Origin: an uncultured Collinsella sp.
Lineage (GTDB): Bacteria > Actinomycetota > Coriobacteriia > Coriobacteriales > Coriobacteriaceae
Direction of reading: 5' to 3'
DNA: 64,000 nt
Assembly: GCA_949285915.1 (NCBI GenBank)
Contig: CASDZW010000008.1
Coordinates: 1-64,000 of the forward strand
Part shown: one piece after another, positions 7,823 to 40,090 of the stretch
How the letters are laid out: the number at the start of each line of letters is the position of its first letter
How positions within the stretch are numbered: the first letter of the stretch is position 1
The notes under the pieces: model-generated
What the model saw: only the letters and a program-made list of their open reading frames with translations
Told to the model about the DNA's origin: nothing
Database searches by the model: none
Position numbers and translations under genes: made by a program

Positions 7823-8452
7823 ATGGCAGCAGCGCAGCCGGGCAAGATTCGTATGGTCGCAGGACTTGGCAATCCGGGCGACGAGTACGCCGCGACTCGT
7901 CACAACGCGGGCTTTCGCGCCGTCGATGAGCTTGCGCGCCAGGCGGGCGTGAGCTACTGGAAAAACCAGCTCGGTGCCGAAGTCGCCGTTATCAAGGTAA
8001 ACGACGCTGAGGAAGAGGGCAGCAAACGCGAGGTCGTGCTGGTAAAGCCCCAGAGCTTTATGAACACGAGCGGCGGCCCCATCTCCAAACTCTGCACCAC
8101 CTACAAGGTGCGCCCCGAGGAGGTGCTCGTCATCCACGACGAGCTCGATATCCCCGAGGGCGACGTGCGCGTGAAGGTCGGCGGCGGGCACGCCGGACAC
8201 AACGGCCTGCGCTCCATTATCGACAAGCTAGGCAGCCGCGACTTTAGCCGCATCCGTGTAGGGATCGGCAACCCGCCTGGGCGCATGCCGGTGGCGGATT
8301 TTGTGCTGAAGCAGTTCCGCCCCAAGGAGCTCGAGGAGTTTGACGAGACCTGCGCCCGCGCGGCAGACGCCGCGGCGCTTGCCCTCGTGCGCGGCGTCGT
8401 GTTTGCGCGCGACCATGTCAACGGGGCGGCCGCGCAAAACGGCAAGCACTAG
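7823..8452 (+). CDS. pth: peptidyl-tRNA hydrolase
   Basis: A 209-residue esterase that releases tRNA from prematurely dropped peptidyl-tRNA. ATG 7823 follows AAAGGAGCAGCA; the frame runs further upstream but without homology. Family motifs are GLGNPG (14-19), TRHNAG with catalytic His27, KPQSFMNTSG with the substrate Asn, VIHDELDIPEG with the catalytic Asp, and GGHAGHNGLRSI. Length is normal for bacterial Pth. The gene has its own candidate promoter after the prs terminator. No other gene is close downstream in the same unit: 216 bases separate it from the oxidoreductase pair, and a TATAAT box lies in that gap. Confidence 0.96.
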   Translation: MAAAQPGKIRMVAGLGNPGDEYAATRHNAGFRAVDELARQAGVSYWKNQLGAEVAVIKVNDAEEEGSKREVVLVKPQSFMNTSGGPISKLCTTYKVRPEEVLVIHDELDIPEGDVRVKVGGGHAGHNGLRSIIDKLGSRDFSRIRVGIGNPPGRMPVADFVLKQFRPKELEEFDETCARAADAAALALVRGVVFARDHVNGAAAQNGKH

Positions 8453-18518: not shown

Positions 18519-21020
18519 CTACATCAACTCGAGCGAGGGGTGGTCGATGCCGTGCTCGACGGAGTAGGCCCACAGCTCGTCGCGCTTGGCAGCAAAGTCG
18601 CTGCACGTCGCCTCAAACCGCGCCGCATCAACGAGGGAAAGGCCTGTCTTGGCGAGCTCGAAGCGGTCCATACCGTTTGCGTAGAGCATGCCGTAGGGCG
18701 TGGTCGTGGCGCCTTGGTTGCGGAAGCCGCGGACGCAGAATCGGCTCGCACCCGGGCGACGCGCGATCAGGCGCAGCACCTGGCCTTCGTACCCGTGGAA
18801 ACAGAAGAGCACTGGCACGTCCGTGCCAAAGAGCTCCTCAAACTCGTCGGCGCTAAACGCGCCGGCGGCGTCGCCCGGAGCCGCCAGGCGGAGCAGGTCG
18901 ACCACGTTCACAAAGCGCACGCGCACGCCCGCCTCACTCATGAGGCGCGCGGCGGCAAGGGCCTCGACCGTCACCACATCGCCCGCGCTCGCCACCACAA
19001 GATCGGGGCGCTCGCCTGCGGTCGTGCTTGACGCCCAATCCCACACGGCGGCGCCGCGCGCGAGCTCGGCGGTTGCCTCCGCGAGCGTGAGGTAGACCGG
19101 GCTCTCGTGCTTGCCGGCAATGATGGCGTTCACGCGGTTGGTGGACGCGTAGCAGCGGCGCATCACGGCGAGCATCATGTTGGCATCGACCGGGTAGTAC
19201 AGGCGCGCGATGTCGAGCGCGCCCGCCTTGTTGATGAGCAGGTCGGCAAAACCGGGATCTTGGTGCGTGAAGCCGTTGTGGTCCTGGCGCCACACGTGAC
19301 TGGTGAGCAGAATGTTCAGGCTCGAGAGCGGCTTGCGCCAGGCGCCGGGGGCCAAGCTCTCCTCTAGCCATTTGAGGTGCTGGCCCACCATGGAGCCCGC
19401 CACCTGAGCAAACGCCTCGTAGGTGGCCCAGATGCCGTGGCGCCCCGTGAGCACGTAGCCCTCGAGCATGCCCTCGCACTGGTGCTCGGAGAGCACCTCG
19501 ACCACTTTGCCGGACGGCACAAGGTCAAGGTCCGCGGGGTCGTCGACGGGGTCTGCCACCGGCGTGGCACCGTCGTCGCGGGCGATGGCACCCGCGTTCC
19601 ACTGCTTGCCCGTGACCTCGAGCGAGGCGTCCATGCGGTTGCTGGAGAGCTCGTCGGGGCTGAACAGGCGGAAGTTGTCGGGGTTCTCGCGCATGACCTC
19701 GCGCGTGTATGCACCGCACATGCCGGCAAGCCCCACCTTGCGCTGGCCACGCGTGCGGTCGGAGATGAGAAGCGCCCAGTCCGCCGGGTCAGGCAGCGCA
19801 AGGGCGCGCCGGCAGGTACCGCCGTCGGCGAGCGGGTTCACCCCAAGGCGCATCGCGCCCATGGGCATGATGGAGCGCACCGCGGGCACAAAGGCGCCTG
19901 TGTCGTCAAAGAGCTCCTCCGGCCGGTAGGAGCGCAGCCACTGCTCAAGCCACGCGAGCCGCTCAGGATCCGCGCCAATGCGCAGGGGCACTTCGTGGAT
20001 GGAGGTCGTGTCCTCAAAGGGCGTGCCGTCAGGACCCGCGGGCGTGGTCCAACCTTTGGGCGACTGGAAGATGATAAGCGGATAGGCCGGCCCCGCCGCG
20101 GGCTCCGTGCGGGCGGCACCGCGTGCAGCGGCGTCGGCCGCCTCGGCCTTGATCGCGCAGATGCGTGCGTATACGTCCTCAAGAAGCTCGGCAAACCGCG
20201 TGTGGAACGAAAGCGGATCCTCGTCATCAAAACCCACGGTAAAGGTCACCGGGTCGTAGCCGAGGCCGCGGAAGTACATCGCGCGCTCCTCGGGCGTGGC
20301 CGCCGCAATGAGCGAGGGCATGGTGATCTTGTAACCGTTGAGGTGAAGAATCGGCAGCACAATGCCGTCGGTTGCCGGGTTCATGATGCGCGACATGCTC
20401 CAGGCGGACGCGATGGCGCCCTCCTCCGACTCGCCGTCGCCCACGATGGGCACGATCAGCTGGTCGGGGTTGTCAAAAGCGGCACCAAAAGCGTGGCTGA
20501 GGGTATAGCCGAGCTCGCCCCCGGAATGGATGGAGCCGGGCAGCGCCGGCGTGCAGTTGGAGGGCATACCGCCGGGCGCCGCATAGGCGCGCATAAAGGT
20601 GGCGAGGCCTTCCTCGGTAGGCGTGACCTGGGGATAGCGCTCGGTGTAGGAGCCGTCAACAAGCGCGCTCACCGCACCGGCGTTGCCGCCGTGACCGGGG
20701 CCGAGCACCACAAGCGCGTGCTGGGCGTGCGCCGCAACGAGGCGGTTCACGTGTGCGTAGATAAAGTTGAGGCCGGGGATGGTGCCCCAGTGGCCCACCG
20801 GGCGCGGCTTCACGTCGTCAAAGGTGAGGGGCCGGCGCAAAAGCGGGTTGGCGCGCAGGTAAATCTGACCGAGGGACAGGTAGTTTGCGCAGCGCCAGTA
20901 GGCGTCGAGCGACCGCGCCGTCGCAGGCGTGATGGAGACGCGTTTGGCACGCCAGGCGCCCTCGGCGCTATGCGGGACGGTGCCGACGGGTCCCTCGGCA
21001 TATGCCCGTTGAGACGCCAT
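18519..21020 (-). CDS. xfp: xylulose-5-phosphate/fructose-6-phosphate phosphoketolase
   Basis: An 833-residue thiamine-diphosphate enzyme that splits xylulose-5-P (and often fructose-6-P) with phosphate to acetyl-phosphate plus a C3 or C4 sugar phosphate. Landmarks: NYLSLGQIYL, VGHWGTIPGLNFIYAH, VVLGPGHGGNAG, the TPP/Mg site GDGESEEGAIASAW, and the second half with HVWRQDHNGFTHQDPGF. Length is typical. ATG 21020 follows GGGAGGGA; an ATG-proximal TATGAT lies upstream on the minus strand. glmS lies just upstream in the same direction, with a 126-base gap. It implies heterofermentative or bifid-shunt-type carbon flow. Confidence 0.96.
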   Translation of the reverse strand: MASQRAYAEGPVGTVPHSAEGAWRAKRVSITPATARSLDAYWRCANYLSLGQIYLRANPLLRRPLTFDDVKPRPVGHWGTIPGLNFIYAHVNRLVAAHAQHALVVLGPGHGGNAGAVSALVDGSYTERYPQVTPTEEGLATFMRAYAAPGGMPSNCTPALPGSIHSGGELGYTLSHAFGAAFDNPDQLIVPIVGDGESEEGAIASAWSMSRIMNPATDGIVLPILHLNGYKITMPSLIAAATPEERAMYFRGLGYDPVTFTVGFDDEDPLSFHTRFAELLEDVYARICAIKAEAADAAARGAARTEPAAGPAYPLIIFQSPKGWTTPAGPDGTPFEDTTSIHEVPLRIGADPERLAWLEQWLRSYRPEELFDDTGAFVPAVRSIMPMGAMRLGVNPLADGGTCRRALALPDPADWALLISDRTRGQRKVGLAGMCGAYTREVMRENPDNFRLFSPDELSSNRMDASLEVTGKQWNAGAIARDDGATPVADPVDDPADLDLVPSGKVVEVLSEHQCEGMLEGYVLTGRHGIWATYEAFAQVAGSMVGQHLKWLEESLAPGAWRKPLSSLNILLTSHVWRQDHNGFTHQDPGFADLLINKAGALDIARLYYPVDANMMLAVMRRCYASTNRVNAIIAGKHESPVYLTLAEATAELARGAAVWDWASSTTAGERPDLVVASAGDVVTVEALAAARLMSEAGVRVRFVNVVDLLRLAAPGDAAGAFSADEFEELFGTDVPVLFCFHGYEGQVLRLIARRPGASRFCVRGFRNQGATTTPYGMLYANGMDRFELAKTGLSLVDAARFEATCSDFAAKRDELWAYSVEHGIDHPSLELM

Positions 21021-36016: not shown

Positions 36017-36925
36017 ATGCCAAAACGCTCCTTAGAAGTCAGGCGGATTTCCTTCAGAAAGAAGCGTGACCGCTCTGACAATCCGCAAAAGTTTGCGCCG
36101 TCCGATCTTAAAGGCACTAACCTCTTAGAGATTTTTTACACATGGCTCAGCGACCCAAACGCCATCCCCTTTATGGAGGATGATTCCGAGGATTGCGTTG
36201 TAATCAAAGAAATTACCCGCCCTAGCTCCCTAACGATCTTTATTGATACGAATTCGGGGAAGCGTGGCGAGGCGGGAGAAGTATATACTCCTGCAAGCAC
36301 AAAGTCGGTATACCACATTACTGAAGAAGAAGCACCCACCGGCCACACCAGAGCCCTACTCTATGTTCCAGAACAAGGGCGCAACGCATTATTCTTTTCA
36401 GAGTATTGCCAGAGAGGAACCGCAGGTACTAGACTAATCAAGCTCTTTAAGAGATGGTTCGACAAAAACTATCCAGATATTCTTATGGAAACCGAATTCG
36501 CTCTCGAGGGACAAGAGTGGTTTGAACATATCTCAGCAGTAAAAAGTATAGAATTTAGAGCCCATCGCTTGCCTGCAAACTCTTACGGGGCGCTCGGCAC
36601 TGAAAAGGGCTCATTTTGTTTTGAAGTAAAGCCGGACAAGGGCAGGTCCTTCCCAGTTAAAACACTGCTCGATATGAAAGGGCAGGAAAAAGTCGCATCG
36701 ACCGTGTTCGGTATCCCAGAGCTGGATGGGGTGGGCGAAAGCCGGTTGCTGGCAACCGTAATCGGAAAAGACGGTCGAAGCAAGAAAGTTGATCTTGCTG
36801 ATGAGGTTATGCCGCATTTCCGTAGAACGCTCAGTGAATCTGGCGAGCCGGAAATATCTAATGATGAGTTTATCGAACGATGCCTGGGCTATTCTGACGA
36901 GATTATTTCTCGTCTTGACGGGTAG
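36017..36925 (+). CDS. protein of unknown function, first gene of a two-gene cassette
   Basis: A 302-residue soluble-looking protein I do not recognise. It begins with a basic segment (MPKRSLEVRRISFRKKRDR) and has no signal peptide or membrane helix. Recognisable stretches are LLEIFYTWLSDPNAIPF, LLYVPEQGRNALFFSEY with GTAGTRLIKLFKRWF, and an acidic C-terminus. ATG 36017 follows AAAGGGGAG. The gene is AT-richer than its rpiR neighbour, and its stop is 9 bases from a four-helix membrane protein gene. It sits between a sugar locus and a reverse-transcriptase defence locus. A sensor or effector partner of the membrane protein is a guess; no enzyme motif is seen. Confidence 0.75.
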   Translation: MPKRSLEVRRISFRKKRDRSDNPQKFAPSDLKGTNLLEIFYTWLSDPNAIPFMEDDSEDCVVIKEITRPSSLTIFIDTNSGKRGEAGEVYTPASTKSVYHITEEEAPTGHTRALLYVPEQGRNALFFSEYCQRGTAGTRLIKLFKRWFDKNYPDILMETEFALEGQEWFEHISAVKSIEFRAHRLPANSYGALGTEKGSFCFEVKPDKGRSFPVKTLLDMKGQEKVASTVFGIPELDGVGESRLLATVIGKDGRSKKVDLADEVMPHFRRTLSESGEPEISNDEFIERCLGYSDEIISRLDG

Positions 36926-36934
36926 ACGATTTTA

Positions 36935-37435
36935 ATGATCCGCCATTATTTGAGAACCCTTTGTTATCTCGGCGATAATGGGGAGAGGAAGCTCAACCTC
37001 CTCCATGCAACAGTCCAAATTGGCGTCCCCATCATAGGCGCAATTGCCTCTTATTTCTTGGGAGTAAGAATTGATCAGCGACAGAATATTTTCTCTCTTA
37101 TTTCGGTCATAACGGGGCTCATGTGCACCGTAGCCGCGTTGCTCTTTGAAACAAGAACCTCTACCCTACGGTCAGATGCACTGACAACATGCCGAGATGA
37201 GAATTCGGTCGACGAGCTTTTCTATCTCTGCTGCTGGCTAATTGTCGTTGGAATTCTCGGCTCCCTTCTTCTTTTCCTTCCAGACCTTAGTTACCCCGTA
37301 TCCATACCTATTCTATTACGCGACTTATATTCATGCGTTTGTATGGCGTTTGTCCTGCATTTCGCAATGTCCATGTCATCCTTTGCCACAAGATTTATTC
37401 GGATTTATATAAGAACCGCTGAACATAGAGATTAG
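36935..37435 (+). CDS. four-helix membrane protein, second gene of the cassette
   Basis: A 166-residue protein with four likely membrane helices: around residues 25-45 (VQIGVPIIGAIASYFLG), 54-71 (LISVITGLMCTVAALLF), 95-113 (CWLIVVGILGSLLLFL) and 128-150 (CVCMAFVLHFAMSMSS). Basic residues flank the ends. I do not recognise a family. It starts 9 bases after the stop of the 302-residue gene, with only a weak ribosome site, so translation is probably coupled. Membrane proteins paired with a cytosolic partner are common as effectors in phage-defence pairs. That is inference from layout and position only. Confidence 0.7.
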   Translation: MIRHYLRTLCYLGDNGERKLNLLHATVQIGVPIIGAIASYFLGVRIDQRQNIFSLISVITGLMCTVAALLFETRTSTLRSDALTTCRDENSVDELFYLCCWLIVVGILGSLLLFLPDLSYPVSIPILLRDLYSCVCMAFVLHFAMSMSSFATRFIRIYIRTAEHRD

Positions 37436-37791: not shown

Positions 37792-39168
37792 TTAAGAAAT
37801 CAATCCCACATCCCTCTCAAGAGATTTCGTTATGCGATGTATCGCCTTTCGATACAGCAGGGCTATTTTTTCGTCTGAGAGGCTCGCTATTGCTCCATCT
37901 CCCAATAATTCCGCAAGCTTATGCCTCATTTCTTCTACGGTCGCGTCATAATTGAACGCCGGAAAATAACTGCTTTCTTTTCCGTTGTATCTCATTTGGT
38001 AATACGCCTTTTTAAAAGATGGAGTGTCAGCAGCTAGCCCGACTCCATAGCGTTTTGCCATTTTACGAACTAAAGCGTCAAGCTGCGCAAGATAGGAAAC
38101 ATCGTTGATTCTCGAATAATAAAAAAGCCATCCATATCTTGCAAAACTGGCACCATCGTACGTGACCTTGCAACCAGTAATTGTCCTATACAGGTCGCCT
38201 CTGCACCTAATCGCGTCATTAACGCTCGATGTGTTTCCGTGGTTCTTTTCCGCTCTGGCTATTTTTTTGATGCCCTGCTCCAGGGAGCGTTCAATAGACC
38301 TCTTGGAAGACGATCGTACCGATATCAGATTGGGAGAAAATCTATACCCGAGATACTCAAAGCAATCCGTTTTAAGATGTCCTCGCACGACCTTCTCTTC
38401 ATTTAGACAAAGGTGCGATCTTCTTGCGAGTGCAGTGATCTTTTTTTCCGCTTTCCCATATTCGGCAACCGAGCAGACTATCAGAATGTCATCAACATAT
38501 CGTCGATAAAAACTCGATGGGAATGCCTTTATCATGCGTCGATCTATTTTTGAGGCAACTAGGTTTGCCAGAGAACTCGAGATGGACAGTCCTTGAGGAA
38601 TTCCCCTTGACCGTATGTAAGATGAGGATCTCTTTACACCCATGGGAACTGTTTGATTTATGATCGCATCCTCGATTAACGACAGGATTTCTCTCTTCCT
38701 TATTTTCGAGCGAAGCGTCTTCATTAGGAGTTCTTGATCAATTGAGCCATAGAAATCTCTGAAATCTATTTTTATGAAACAGTCGTATTTCCCATTTAGG
38801 GCATCCTGCTCTACCTCTGTTATAAGCGATTGCGGATTTGGAGTCTTGCAATCCAATCCAAACAGCTCACTAATAATATTGGACAAGACCTTAAGAACAA
38901 GCCTGTCGCGCACCGTCGGAATGCTAAGAACCCTTGGACAACGATCGGCTCCTTTAGAAAGAAGCACCTGCTTGTATGGAGCGAAATGATATTTCCCTTG
39001 TAAAACTCTCCGAGAAATATCGTTTACATTCTCATCAAGATGCCTTTTGAAGTTCTCCGTTGTGACACGATCAACTCCAACCGTCGTGGAGCCATAAATT
39101 GATTGGAGAAATACTTCGGCTAGATGCTTAGGAGCATAATAGCGCTTAAAGAGCTCAGCTGCTGTCAT
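37792..39168 (-). CDS. reverse transcriptase, defence-associated type
   Basis: A 458-residue RNA-directed DNA polymerase. The palm is complete: IKIDFRDFYGSID with catalytic Asp135, RGIPQGLSISSSLANLVAS (188-206), and YVDD (224-227) with the two further catalytic Asps. The N-terminal GVDRVTTENF and SIPTVRDRLVLKVL resemble group II intron-type enzymes. There is no maturase X or HNH endonuclease domain and no intron around the gene, so it is not a group II intron protein. The last about 150 residues form an unassigned domain. ATG 39168 lies 3 bases after the SLATT gene stop, so the two are coupled. This matches the 'unknown group' (UG/DRT) reverse transcriptases of phage defence; I cannot assign the subgroup. 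Confidence 0.9.
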   Translation of the reverse strand: MTAAELFKRYYAPKHLAEVFLQSIYGSTTVGVDRVTTENFKRHLDENVNDISRRVLQGKYHFAPYKQVLLSKGADRCPRVLSIPTVRDRLVLKVLSNIISELFGLDCKTPNPQSLITEVEQDALNGKYDCFIKIDFRDFYGSIDQELLMKTLRSKIRKREILSLIEDAIINQTVPMGVKRSSSYIRSRGIPQGLSISSSLANLVASKIDRRMIKAFPSSFYRRYVDDILIVCSVAEYGKAEKKITALARRSHLCLNEEKVVRGHLKTDCFEYLGYRFSPNLISVRSSSKRSIERSLEQGIKKIARAEKNHGNTSSVNDAIRCRGDLYRTITGCKVTYDGASFARYGWLFYYSRINDVSYLAQLDALVRKMAKRYGVGLAADTPSFKKAYYQMRYNGKESSYFPAFNYDATVEEMRHKLAELLGDGAIASLSDEKIALLYRKAIHRITKSLERDVGLIS

Positions 39169-39171
39169 CTC

Positions 39172-39756
39172 TTACCTGCATATTATTAGGGAAACGAGAA
39201 CCAACACCAGCGGGATAAGGACGTAGATGAAAACACGCAGACCCCAGATTCTGATTTCTTGATTACGCCGAACTGTTTTATCAGCGCCTTCTTTTCCAAT
39301 GAAATAATCTTCCTTTGTATGGTTTTCTGTACTTGCGACGATGTCGACATAACGATTACCGATCGCATCCATTTCTTTGGTCAGCTCTGTTTCCTCTAGT
39401 CGCGCCTTAGCTGAATCGACCTCAAGCCAAAGTCTCTGCAGTTCGAGGTACACAAACTTCATTCGCTCGGCGCGAACCGCATAGTTTTGTCCGGAAACGT
39501 ACATTGTGCATATGGTGATAATTGCAGCTGAAGCTATCGATAAGAATGAAAGAACATTCTTTGCTGTGTCAGAGGCTCCCGTCAGGAATAATGGCGCCAA
39601 AGAAAGGATAAGGGTCAGGCAGGAATAATAGACCGTAGCGTGTTTCACCAAGGCGTCTAACCCGAGCAAGCGCTTTTCTGCTTGAATTCTAGCCGCACGA
39701 GTATTCTTGATTAGCAAGGGAAGATAATGATCTTTCGGGTGCTCGCAACCGTCCAA
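39172..39756 (-). CDS. SLATT-domain membrane protein
   Basis: A protein of about 194 residues with the SLATT layout. An N-terminal helix (RAARIQAEKRLLGLDALVKHA) is followed by two close membrane helices (about 40-60 and 68-90), a cytosolic helical stretch rich in charged residues (ERMKFVYLELQRLWLEV), and a last hydrophobic segment (VFIYVLIPLVLVLVSLII). SLATT proteins are proposed membrane-pore effectors in conflict systems and are known beside reverse transcriptases. I prefer TTG 39756, which has AGGAG 7 bases upstream; a GTG at 39762 would sit too close to that site. It is the first gene of the pair with the reverse transcriptase. Confidence 0.8.
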   Translation of the reverse strand: MDGCEHPKDHYLPLLIKNTRAARIQAEKRLLGLDALVKHATVYYSCLTLILSLAPLFLTGASDTAKNVLSFLSIASAAIITICTMYVSGQNYAVRAERMKFVYLELQRLWLEVDSAKARLEETELTKEMDAIGNRYVDIVASTENHTKEDYFIGKEGADKTVRRNQEIRIWGLRVFIYVLIPLVLVLVSLIICR

Positions 39757-39774
39757 AGCCACTCTCCTTAATAT

Positions 39775-39898
39775 GGGGACAGTGCTATTCTAAATCGAAA
39801 ATACACTCAGAAGAGTCGCGAGGCAGCCAGAGGCTGTGCTTTACCGCTATTCGAGAATCCTGGTCTCGAATCGGCAGAAAACTGCCAGCGCTGTCCCC
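39775..39898. ncRNA. 124-base multi-hairpin element next to the SLATT-RT operon
   Basis: The ends pair: GGGGACAGTGCT (39775-39786) with AGCGCTGTCCCC (39887-39898), 12 bp with one wobble. Inside are three local hairpins: GCAGCC/GGCTGT (39823-39837), ATTCGAGA/TCTCGAAT (39849-39871) and GGCAG-AAAA-CTGCC (39873-39886). The two non-Watson-Crick pairs are G-U if read on the plus strand and C-A if read on the minus strand, hinting at plus-strand RNA. It lies 18 bases upstream of the SLATT start. Either it is a structured RNA belonging to the system, or a MITE/REP-type element with GGGGACAG ends. Confidence 0.55.
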
Positions 39899-39900
39899 GT

Positions 39901-40090
39901 CTATATTGTAGGCATCAGCCATTGAGTGCTGTCAATCTCTCCAATTGTTCTCAACGGGACATGTGAGATGTCCGAGTCAATCAGCCCCAACAATCTCGCG
40001 CACTCGCAATTGCTTAGGCTTTCCCTAAGCGCTTCGCAGACATAGACCTGGTTATATTCCGTTCGTGCCGGAGTTAGGAGAGGCGTTTGC
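39901..40090 (-). pseudogene. 3' fragment of an unrecognised gene
   Basis: Downstream of rfbB, a minus-strand frame different from rfbB's reads about 63 plausible codons ending at TAG 39903-39901: ARTEYNQVYVCEALRESL, then a Cys-rich NCECARLLGLIDSD and TQWLMPTI. It has no start codon after the rfbB stop and is AT-richer than rfbB, so it looks like the tail of a gene cut by a rearrangement at the end of the polysaccharide operon. The family is unknown. Confidence 0.35.

What the first reader, a model, noticed from the sequence alone, without database searches (positions are those of the whole stretch)
39775..39898. 124-base element with a 12-bp closing stem and three inner hairpins beside the SLATT-RT operon
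Closing arms GGGGACAGTGCT/AGCGCTGTCCCC enclose three separate hairpins (8-bp, 6-bp and 5-bp stems). Two imperfect pairs are G-U on the plus strand but C-A on the minus strand, suggesting RNA function on the plus strand, divergent from the operon. It ends 18 bases from the SLATT start. It could be the RNA template or partner of the RT, or a mobile MITE/REP element with GGGGACAG termini.
Basis: seen in the sequence. Interest (0 to 1): 0.68.

Follow-up and report, generated by a model that had tools for sequence, protein, structure and literature searches.

The report
Template RNA of DRT10 phage-defence system
The folded element is almost certainly the small RNA of a recently described bacterial anti-phage system (DRT10) whose reverse transcriptase copies a short RNA template over and over, much as telomerase does; it is a new member of a known kind, and it is read from the opposite strand to the one first proposed.

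Summary
39775-39898 is a 124-nt element with a 12-bp closing stem and four (not three) inner hairpins, far more stable than shuffles (z about -5 on either strand), and single-copy in its genome. The RT beside it is PADLOC RT_UG17 (E 9e-125) and the SLATT gene is RTasSLATT/SLATT_5. UG17+SLATT is DRT10 (Tang et al. 2025, PMC12632851), a three-part phage-defence system whose ncRNA lies upstream of SLATT on the same strand and templates telomerase-like tandem-repeat cDNA. A covariance model built only from two Coriobacteriia relatives, window left out, finds this element at E 2.4e-13, full length, on the MINUS strand, with 8-10 compensatory pair changes. A near-perfect promoter (TTGACA-N19-TACAAT) ends 6 nt before the minus-strand 5' end. 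Across the family G-U outnumbers A-C in closing stems 55:16 on the SLATT strand, so this locus's two odd pairs are an exception. The RT ends in the conserved serine that primes DNA synthesis in DRT10. The template loop holds a candidate A-B-A' (AUUU-UCG-AUUU), predicting CGAAAAT repeats; that detail alone is not beyond chance. New member of a known kind.

The parts
39775..39898 (-). DRT10 ncRNA (predicted), 124 nt, read on the minus strand
   Evidence: covariance model from L026+L027 only: E 2.4e-13, minus strand, full length; fold z -4.6
39887..39898 (-). 5' arm of closing stem SL1/P1 (GGGGACAGCGCU)
39873..39886 (-). hairpin SL2 (GGCAG-UUUU-CUGCC), 2 of 5 pairs changed on both sides against relatives
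39849..39871 (-). hairpin SL3 (AUUCGAGA-CCAGGAU-UCUCGAAU)
39837..39848 (-). single-stranded junction AGCGGUAAAGCA, at the place of the GUAAyUAA/CUAAU motif of other DRT10 RNAs
39824..39836 (-). hairpin SL4 (CAGCC-UCU-GGCUG)
39805..39816 (-). hairpin SL5 (ACUC-UUCU-GAGU), expected 5' template boundary
   Evidence: role of SL5 from PMC12632851
39787..39804 (-). template loop GUAUUUUCGAUUUAGAAU
   Evidence: position downstream of SL5
39792..39802 (-). candidate A-B-A' template AUUU-UCG-AUUU (A 39799-39802, B 39796-39798, A' 39792-39795); predicted cDNA repeat 5'-CGAAAAT-3'
   Evidence: P 0.2 for this sequence alone; P 0.0002 for the set of 25
39775..39786 (-). 3' arm of closing stem (AGCACUGUCCCC)
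39905..39935 (-). predicted promoter TTGACA (39930-39935) - 19 nt - TACAAT (39905-39910), 6 nt before the RNA's 5' end
   Evidence: read
39172..39762 (-). SLATT membrane protein (SLATT_5 / RTasSLATT); start either GTG 39762 or TTG 39756
37792..39168 (-). UG17 reverse transcriptase (DRT10 RT), YVDD active site, C-terminal ...LERDVGLIS with Ser458 as last residue

Best explanation
The element is the noncoding RNA of a DRT10 anti-phage system, transcribed on the minus strand from a promoter just upstream and followed by SLATT and the UG17 RT. By homology to DRT10, the RT binds the RNA through its closing stem and hairpins and primes DNA synthesis on its own C-terminal serine (Ser458). It then copies a short template in the loop after SL5 up to the SL5 boundary, slips back through the A-A' match and repeats, giving long single-stranded tandem-repeat cDNA. 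In DRT10 this cDNA is thought to control the SLATT membrane protein. Shown here: homology, strand, architecture, conserved RT and serine. Inferred: RNA binding, priming, repeat synthesis and defence. The repeat CGAAAAT is a prediction of moderate confidence.
For: RT is RT_UG17, E 8.8e-125; next best family 2e-35. SLATT is RTasSLATT/SLATT_5. UG17+SLATT+ncRNA = DRT10, ncRNA upstream of SLATT, closing stem with four smaller stem-loops, template after SL5. A model from L026+L027 only finds the held-out window element at 66.9 bits, E 2.4e-13, minus strand, positions 1-127 of 127; it is the only match in the own genome. In the same model's wider search the hits in L028 and L029 lie on the sense strand just upstream of SLATT. 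W keeps 32 of 35 pairs, with 8-10 changed on both sides against L026/L027; in a plain MAFFT alignment 6 pairs change on both sides, 0 of 500 shuffles reach the covariation score, and all slid versions give 0. A closing-stem element lies upstream of SLATT in 71 of 96 non-redundant UG17 loci against 7 of 96 shuffled and 16 of 168 other places. Closing-stem G-U versus A-C is 55:16 on the SLATT strand. Promoter 11/12 ending 6 nt before the RNA. RT C-terminus ends in Ser, or Tyr, in nearly all homologues. A-B-A' near SL5 enriched over shuffles across the set, P 0.0002.
Against: No RNA or cDNA data. The window's own two imperfect closing-stem pairs favour the plus strand (0 G-U, 2 A-C on minus), although the family does not. 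The A-B-A' of this locus alone is not beyond chance (P 0.2), and the position limits of that test were chosen with the published model in mind and after an unrestricted test gave only P 0.048. Rfam has no match. 25 of 96 loci did not pass my simple element filter; some of these do have an element by eye (L031, L077).
Confidence: 0.95

Rival explanations
1. Plus-strand RNA, divergent from the operon.
For: Two imperfect closing pairs are G-U on plus and C-A on minus; the plus-strand fold is 1.2 kcal/mol better.
Against: The held-out covariance model finds only the minus strand; family-wide G-U bias is on the SLATT strand, 55:16; promoter on minus; all published DRT10 ncRNAs are upstream of SLATT in operon direction.
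Confidence: 0.03
2. Mobile MITE/REP element with GGGGACAG ends.
For: Terminal inverted repeats and an intergenic position.
Against: Single copy by BLAST and by covariance model; no match in 66 other genomes of the family; conserved position upstream of SLATT with compensatory changes.
Confidence: 0.005
3. Cis-regulatory leader of the SLATT-RT mRNA (attenuator or riboswitch-like) rather than an RT partner.
For: It lies in the 5' region of the operon, followed by a ribosome-binding site.
Against: DRT10 homologues bind the RNA and need it for cDNA synthesis in vitro; no intrinsic terminator after it; in L031, where RT precedes SLATT, the element precedes the RT.
Confidence: 0.02

Closest known systems
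DRT10 (UG17 RT + SLATT + ncRNA; Tang et al. 2025, PMC12632851)
   Same: RT family, adjacent SLATT, ncRNA upstream on the same strand with closing stem and smaller stem-loops, loop after the last hairpin as template, C-terminal Ser on the RT
   Different: From Coriobacteriia, not E. coli; 124 nt instead of 137; template sequence and predicted 7-nt repeat differ from the 9-nt Eco3 repeat
DRT9 (UG28) ncRNA
   Same: Class 2 DRT; the paper reports closely similar RNA architecture
   Different: RT scores 73 bits for Drt9 against 415 for UG17; DRT9 uses a poly-U template and makes poly-dA
Telomerase RNA
   Same: Template plus alignment segment plus template boundary element is the same logic
   Different: Functional and deep evolutionary parallel only; no membership
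DRT2 (UG2) ncRNA
   Same: RT-associated upstream ncRNA
   Different: Rolling-circle copying into a new gene; RT matches UG17, not Drt2, as best family

Membership tests
DRT10 | UG17 reverse transcriptase with YVDD active site | tested here: met
   RT_UG17 E 8.8e-125 over 1-457; YVDD invariant in A1
DRT10 | Adjacent SLATT gene | tested here: met
   RTasSLATT 2.9e-32, SLATT_5 above cut-off
DRT10 | Structured ncRNA upstream of SLATT, same strand, closing stem with several smaller stem-loops | tested here: met
   held-out covariance model E 2.4e-13 on minus strand; compensatory changes
DRT10 | C-terminal Ser (or Tyr) priming residue on the RT | tested here: met
   RT ends LERDVGLIS; Ser/Tyr near the end in nearly all homologues; priming itself not tested
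DRT10 | A-B-A' template just downstream of SL5 | tested here: inconclusive
   AUUU-UCG-AUUU present 2 nt into the loop; P 0.2 for this locus, P 0.0002 for the set
DRT10 | Tandem-repeat, protein-primed cDNA and phage defence | not testable with these tools
   needs experiment
MITE/REP element | Many copies in the genome | tested here: not met
   one copy by BLAST and by covariance model
DRT9 | UG28 RT | tested here: not met
   Drt9 73 bits against UG17 415 bits

The most novel reading that the evidence does not exclude
A compact DRT10 RNA from Coriobacteriia whose RT makes 7-nt telomere-like CGAAAAT repeats. A sister locus with swapped gene order (ncRNA-RT-SLATT, L031) would suggest that the RNA travels with the RT rather than with SLATT.
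Probability: 0.4. Interest if true: 0.4.

Novelty: new member of a known kind. Interest (0 to 1): 0.3.

Why it matters
It places the bacterial RNA-templated repeat-synthesis system that is proposed as a relative of telomerase in a gut actinobacterial lineage, and gives a testable template and repeat. It also shows that strand calls resting on one or two G-U pairs at a single locus can be wrong.

Tried and rejected
Rfam scan: nothing. Single-protein scan of genome contigs for the RT: nothing; it took an alignment. Plain MAFFT over all phyla does not align the RNA, since sequence conservation is too low, so a family-wide covariance model could not be seeded from DNA alignment; a two-sequence Coriobacteriia seed was used instead. 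An unrestricted A-B-A' test (any position in the loop) gave only weak enrichment (P 0.048). The second window match of R1 (18754-18876, E 0.08) and the L044 match at 8275 (E 0.05) look like chance. The sigma-70 scan missed the promoter because its spacer limit is 18 nt. MITE/REP and plus-strand readings rejected as above.

Full report
What is there. Plus-strand arms GGGGACAGTGCT (39775-39786) and AGCGCTGTCCCC (39887-39898) close a 124-base element. Either strand folds far better than shuffles: plus -53.6 kcal/mol, z -4.97; minus -52.4, z -4.59; 0 of 200 shuffles as good in each case. On the minus strand the inner hairpins are GGCAG/CUGCC, AUUCGAGA/UCUCGAAU, CAGCC/GGCUG and ACUC/GAGU: four, not three. 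The element lies between the SLATT start and the 3' end of an unrelated dTDP-glucose 4,6-dehydratase-like gene (that name is from reading the sequence).

The neighbours name it. The RT (37792-39168, minus) matches PADLOC RT_UG17 at 8.8e-125 over its whole length; the next family is at 2e-35. The gene before it is a SLATT_5 protein matching the RT-associated SLATT models. UG17 plus SLATT was shown in 2025 to be an anti-phage system, DRT10 (PMC12632851). There a 137-nt ncRNA upstream of SLATT binds the RT and has one large closing stem-loop with four smaller ones. The loop after SL5 carries an A-B-A' template from which the RT, primed on its own C-terminal serine, makes long tandem-repeat cDNA in the manner of telomerase.

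Homology test with the window held out. UG17 loci were collected from genomes, viral contigs and plasmids. A covariance model (R1) was built from the elements of only the two nearest relatives, L026 (Olsenella uli; its RT is 52% identical, where the same locus is L005) and L027. Searched against the 64-kb window it finds 39774-39899, minus strand, 66.9 bits, E 2.4e-13, model positions 1-127 of 127. It is the only match in the own genome. Of 67 genomes of the family only the own one has a match; the one other UG17 genome of that family, G309, holds a more distant RT and was missed at that stricter setting, while the same locus (L028) is found weakly, E 0.0005. In the wider search L028 and L029 match on the sense strand just upstream of SLATT. 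Between W and L026/L027, 32 of 35 pairs are kept in W, with 8 and 10 pairs changed on both sides (an alignment fitted to the structure). In an alignment not fitted to structure, six pairs change on both sides, no shuffle of 500 reaches the covariation score, and sliding the partners leaves none (only three sequences, so the shuffle control is coarse).

Family-wide. In 96 non-redundant UG17 loci, 71 have a 95-175-nt closing-stem element with at least three inner hairpins ending near the SLATT start. Shuffled versions give 7 of 96, and other places in the same loci 16 of 168. In L031 the order is RT then SLATT, and a closing-stem element (z -4.4) sits upstream of the RT.

Strand. With G-U and A-C treated alike when arms are found, the other 61 loci have 55 G-U against 16 A-C on the SLATT strand; W is an exception with 0 and 2. 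A promoter TTGACA-N19-TACAAT ends 6 nt before the minus-strand 5' end. Promoter-like sites there occur in 14 of 63 loci against 3.5 expected. The model match is on minus. The RNA is therefore most likely co-directional with SLATT-RT.

Mechanism, inferred by homology. The RT ends in ...LERDVGLIS; a terminal or near-terminal Ser or Tyr is found in nearly all homologues, and this residue primes synthesis in the studied systems. The loop after SL5 is GUAUUUUCGAUUUAGAAU. It holds AUUU-UCG-AUUU starting 2 nt after SL5, predicting 7-nt cDNA repeats CGAAAAT. For this sequence alone such a repeat has P 0.2; over 25 loops the sum of A lengths exceeds shuffles with P 0.0002 when A must start in the first four bases, a limit chosen with the published model in mind.

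Novelty. New member of a known kind.

Noticed in passing
window 36017-37435 (+): Two co-directional genes (302 aa and 166 aa, the second apparently a membrane protein) downstream of and convergent with the DRT10 operon, with no match in Pfam, PADLOC or NCBIfam; a possible uncharacterised defence pair in the same island.
   Followed up: partly
L031:3804-6011: UG17 locus with swapped gene order: closing-stem element, then RT (ending in Tyr), then SLATT.
   Followed up: partly
L022, L037, L038, L054 upstream of SLATT: UG17 loci in which the simple element filter found no convincing closing-stem element; these may have diverged RNAs or misplaced gene starts.
   Followed up: no
L065, L084, L101, L088, L115, L086 (proteobacterial elements): A strongly conserved single-stranded CAACUAAU motif (GUAAyUAA in Firmicutes) between SL3 and SL4, replaced by GGUAAAGC in the window; perhaps an RT contact.
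   Followed up: no
window 18754-18876 (-): Weak R1 match (E 0.08), probably chance.
   Followed up: no
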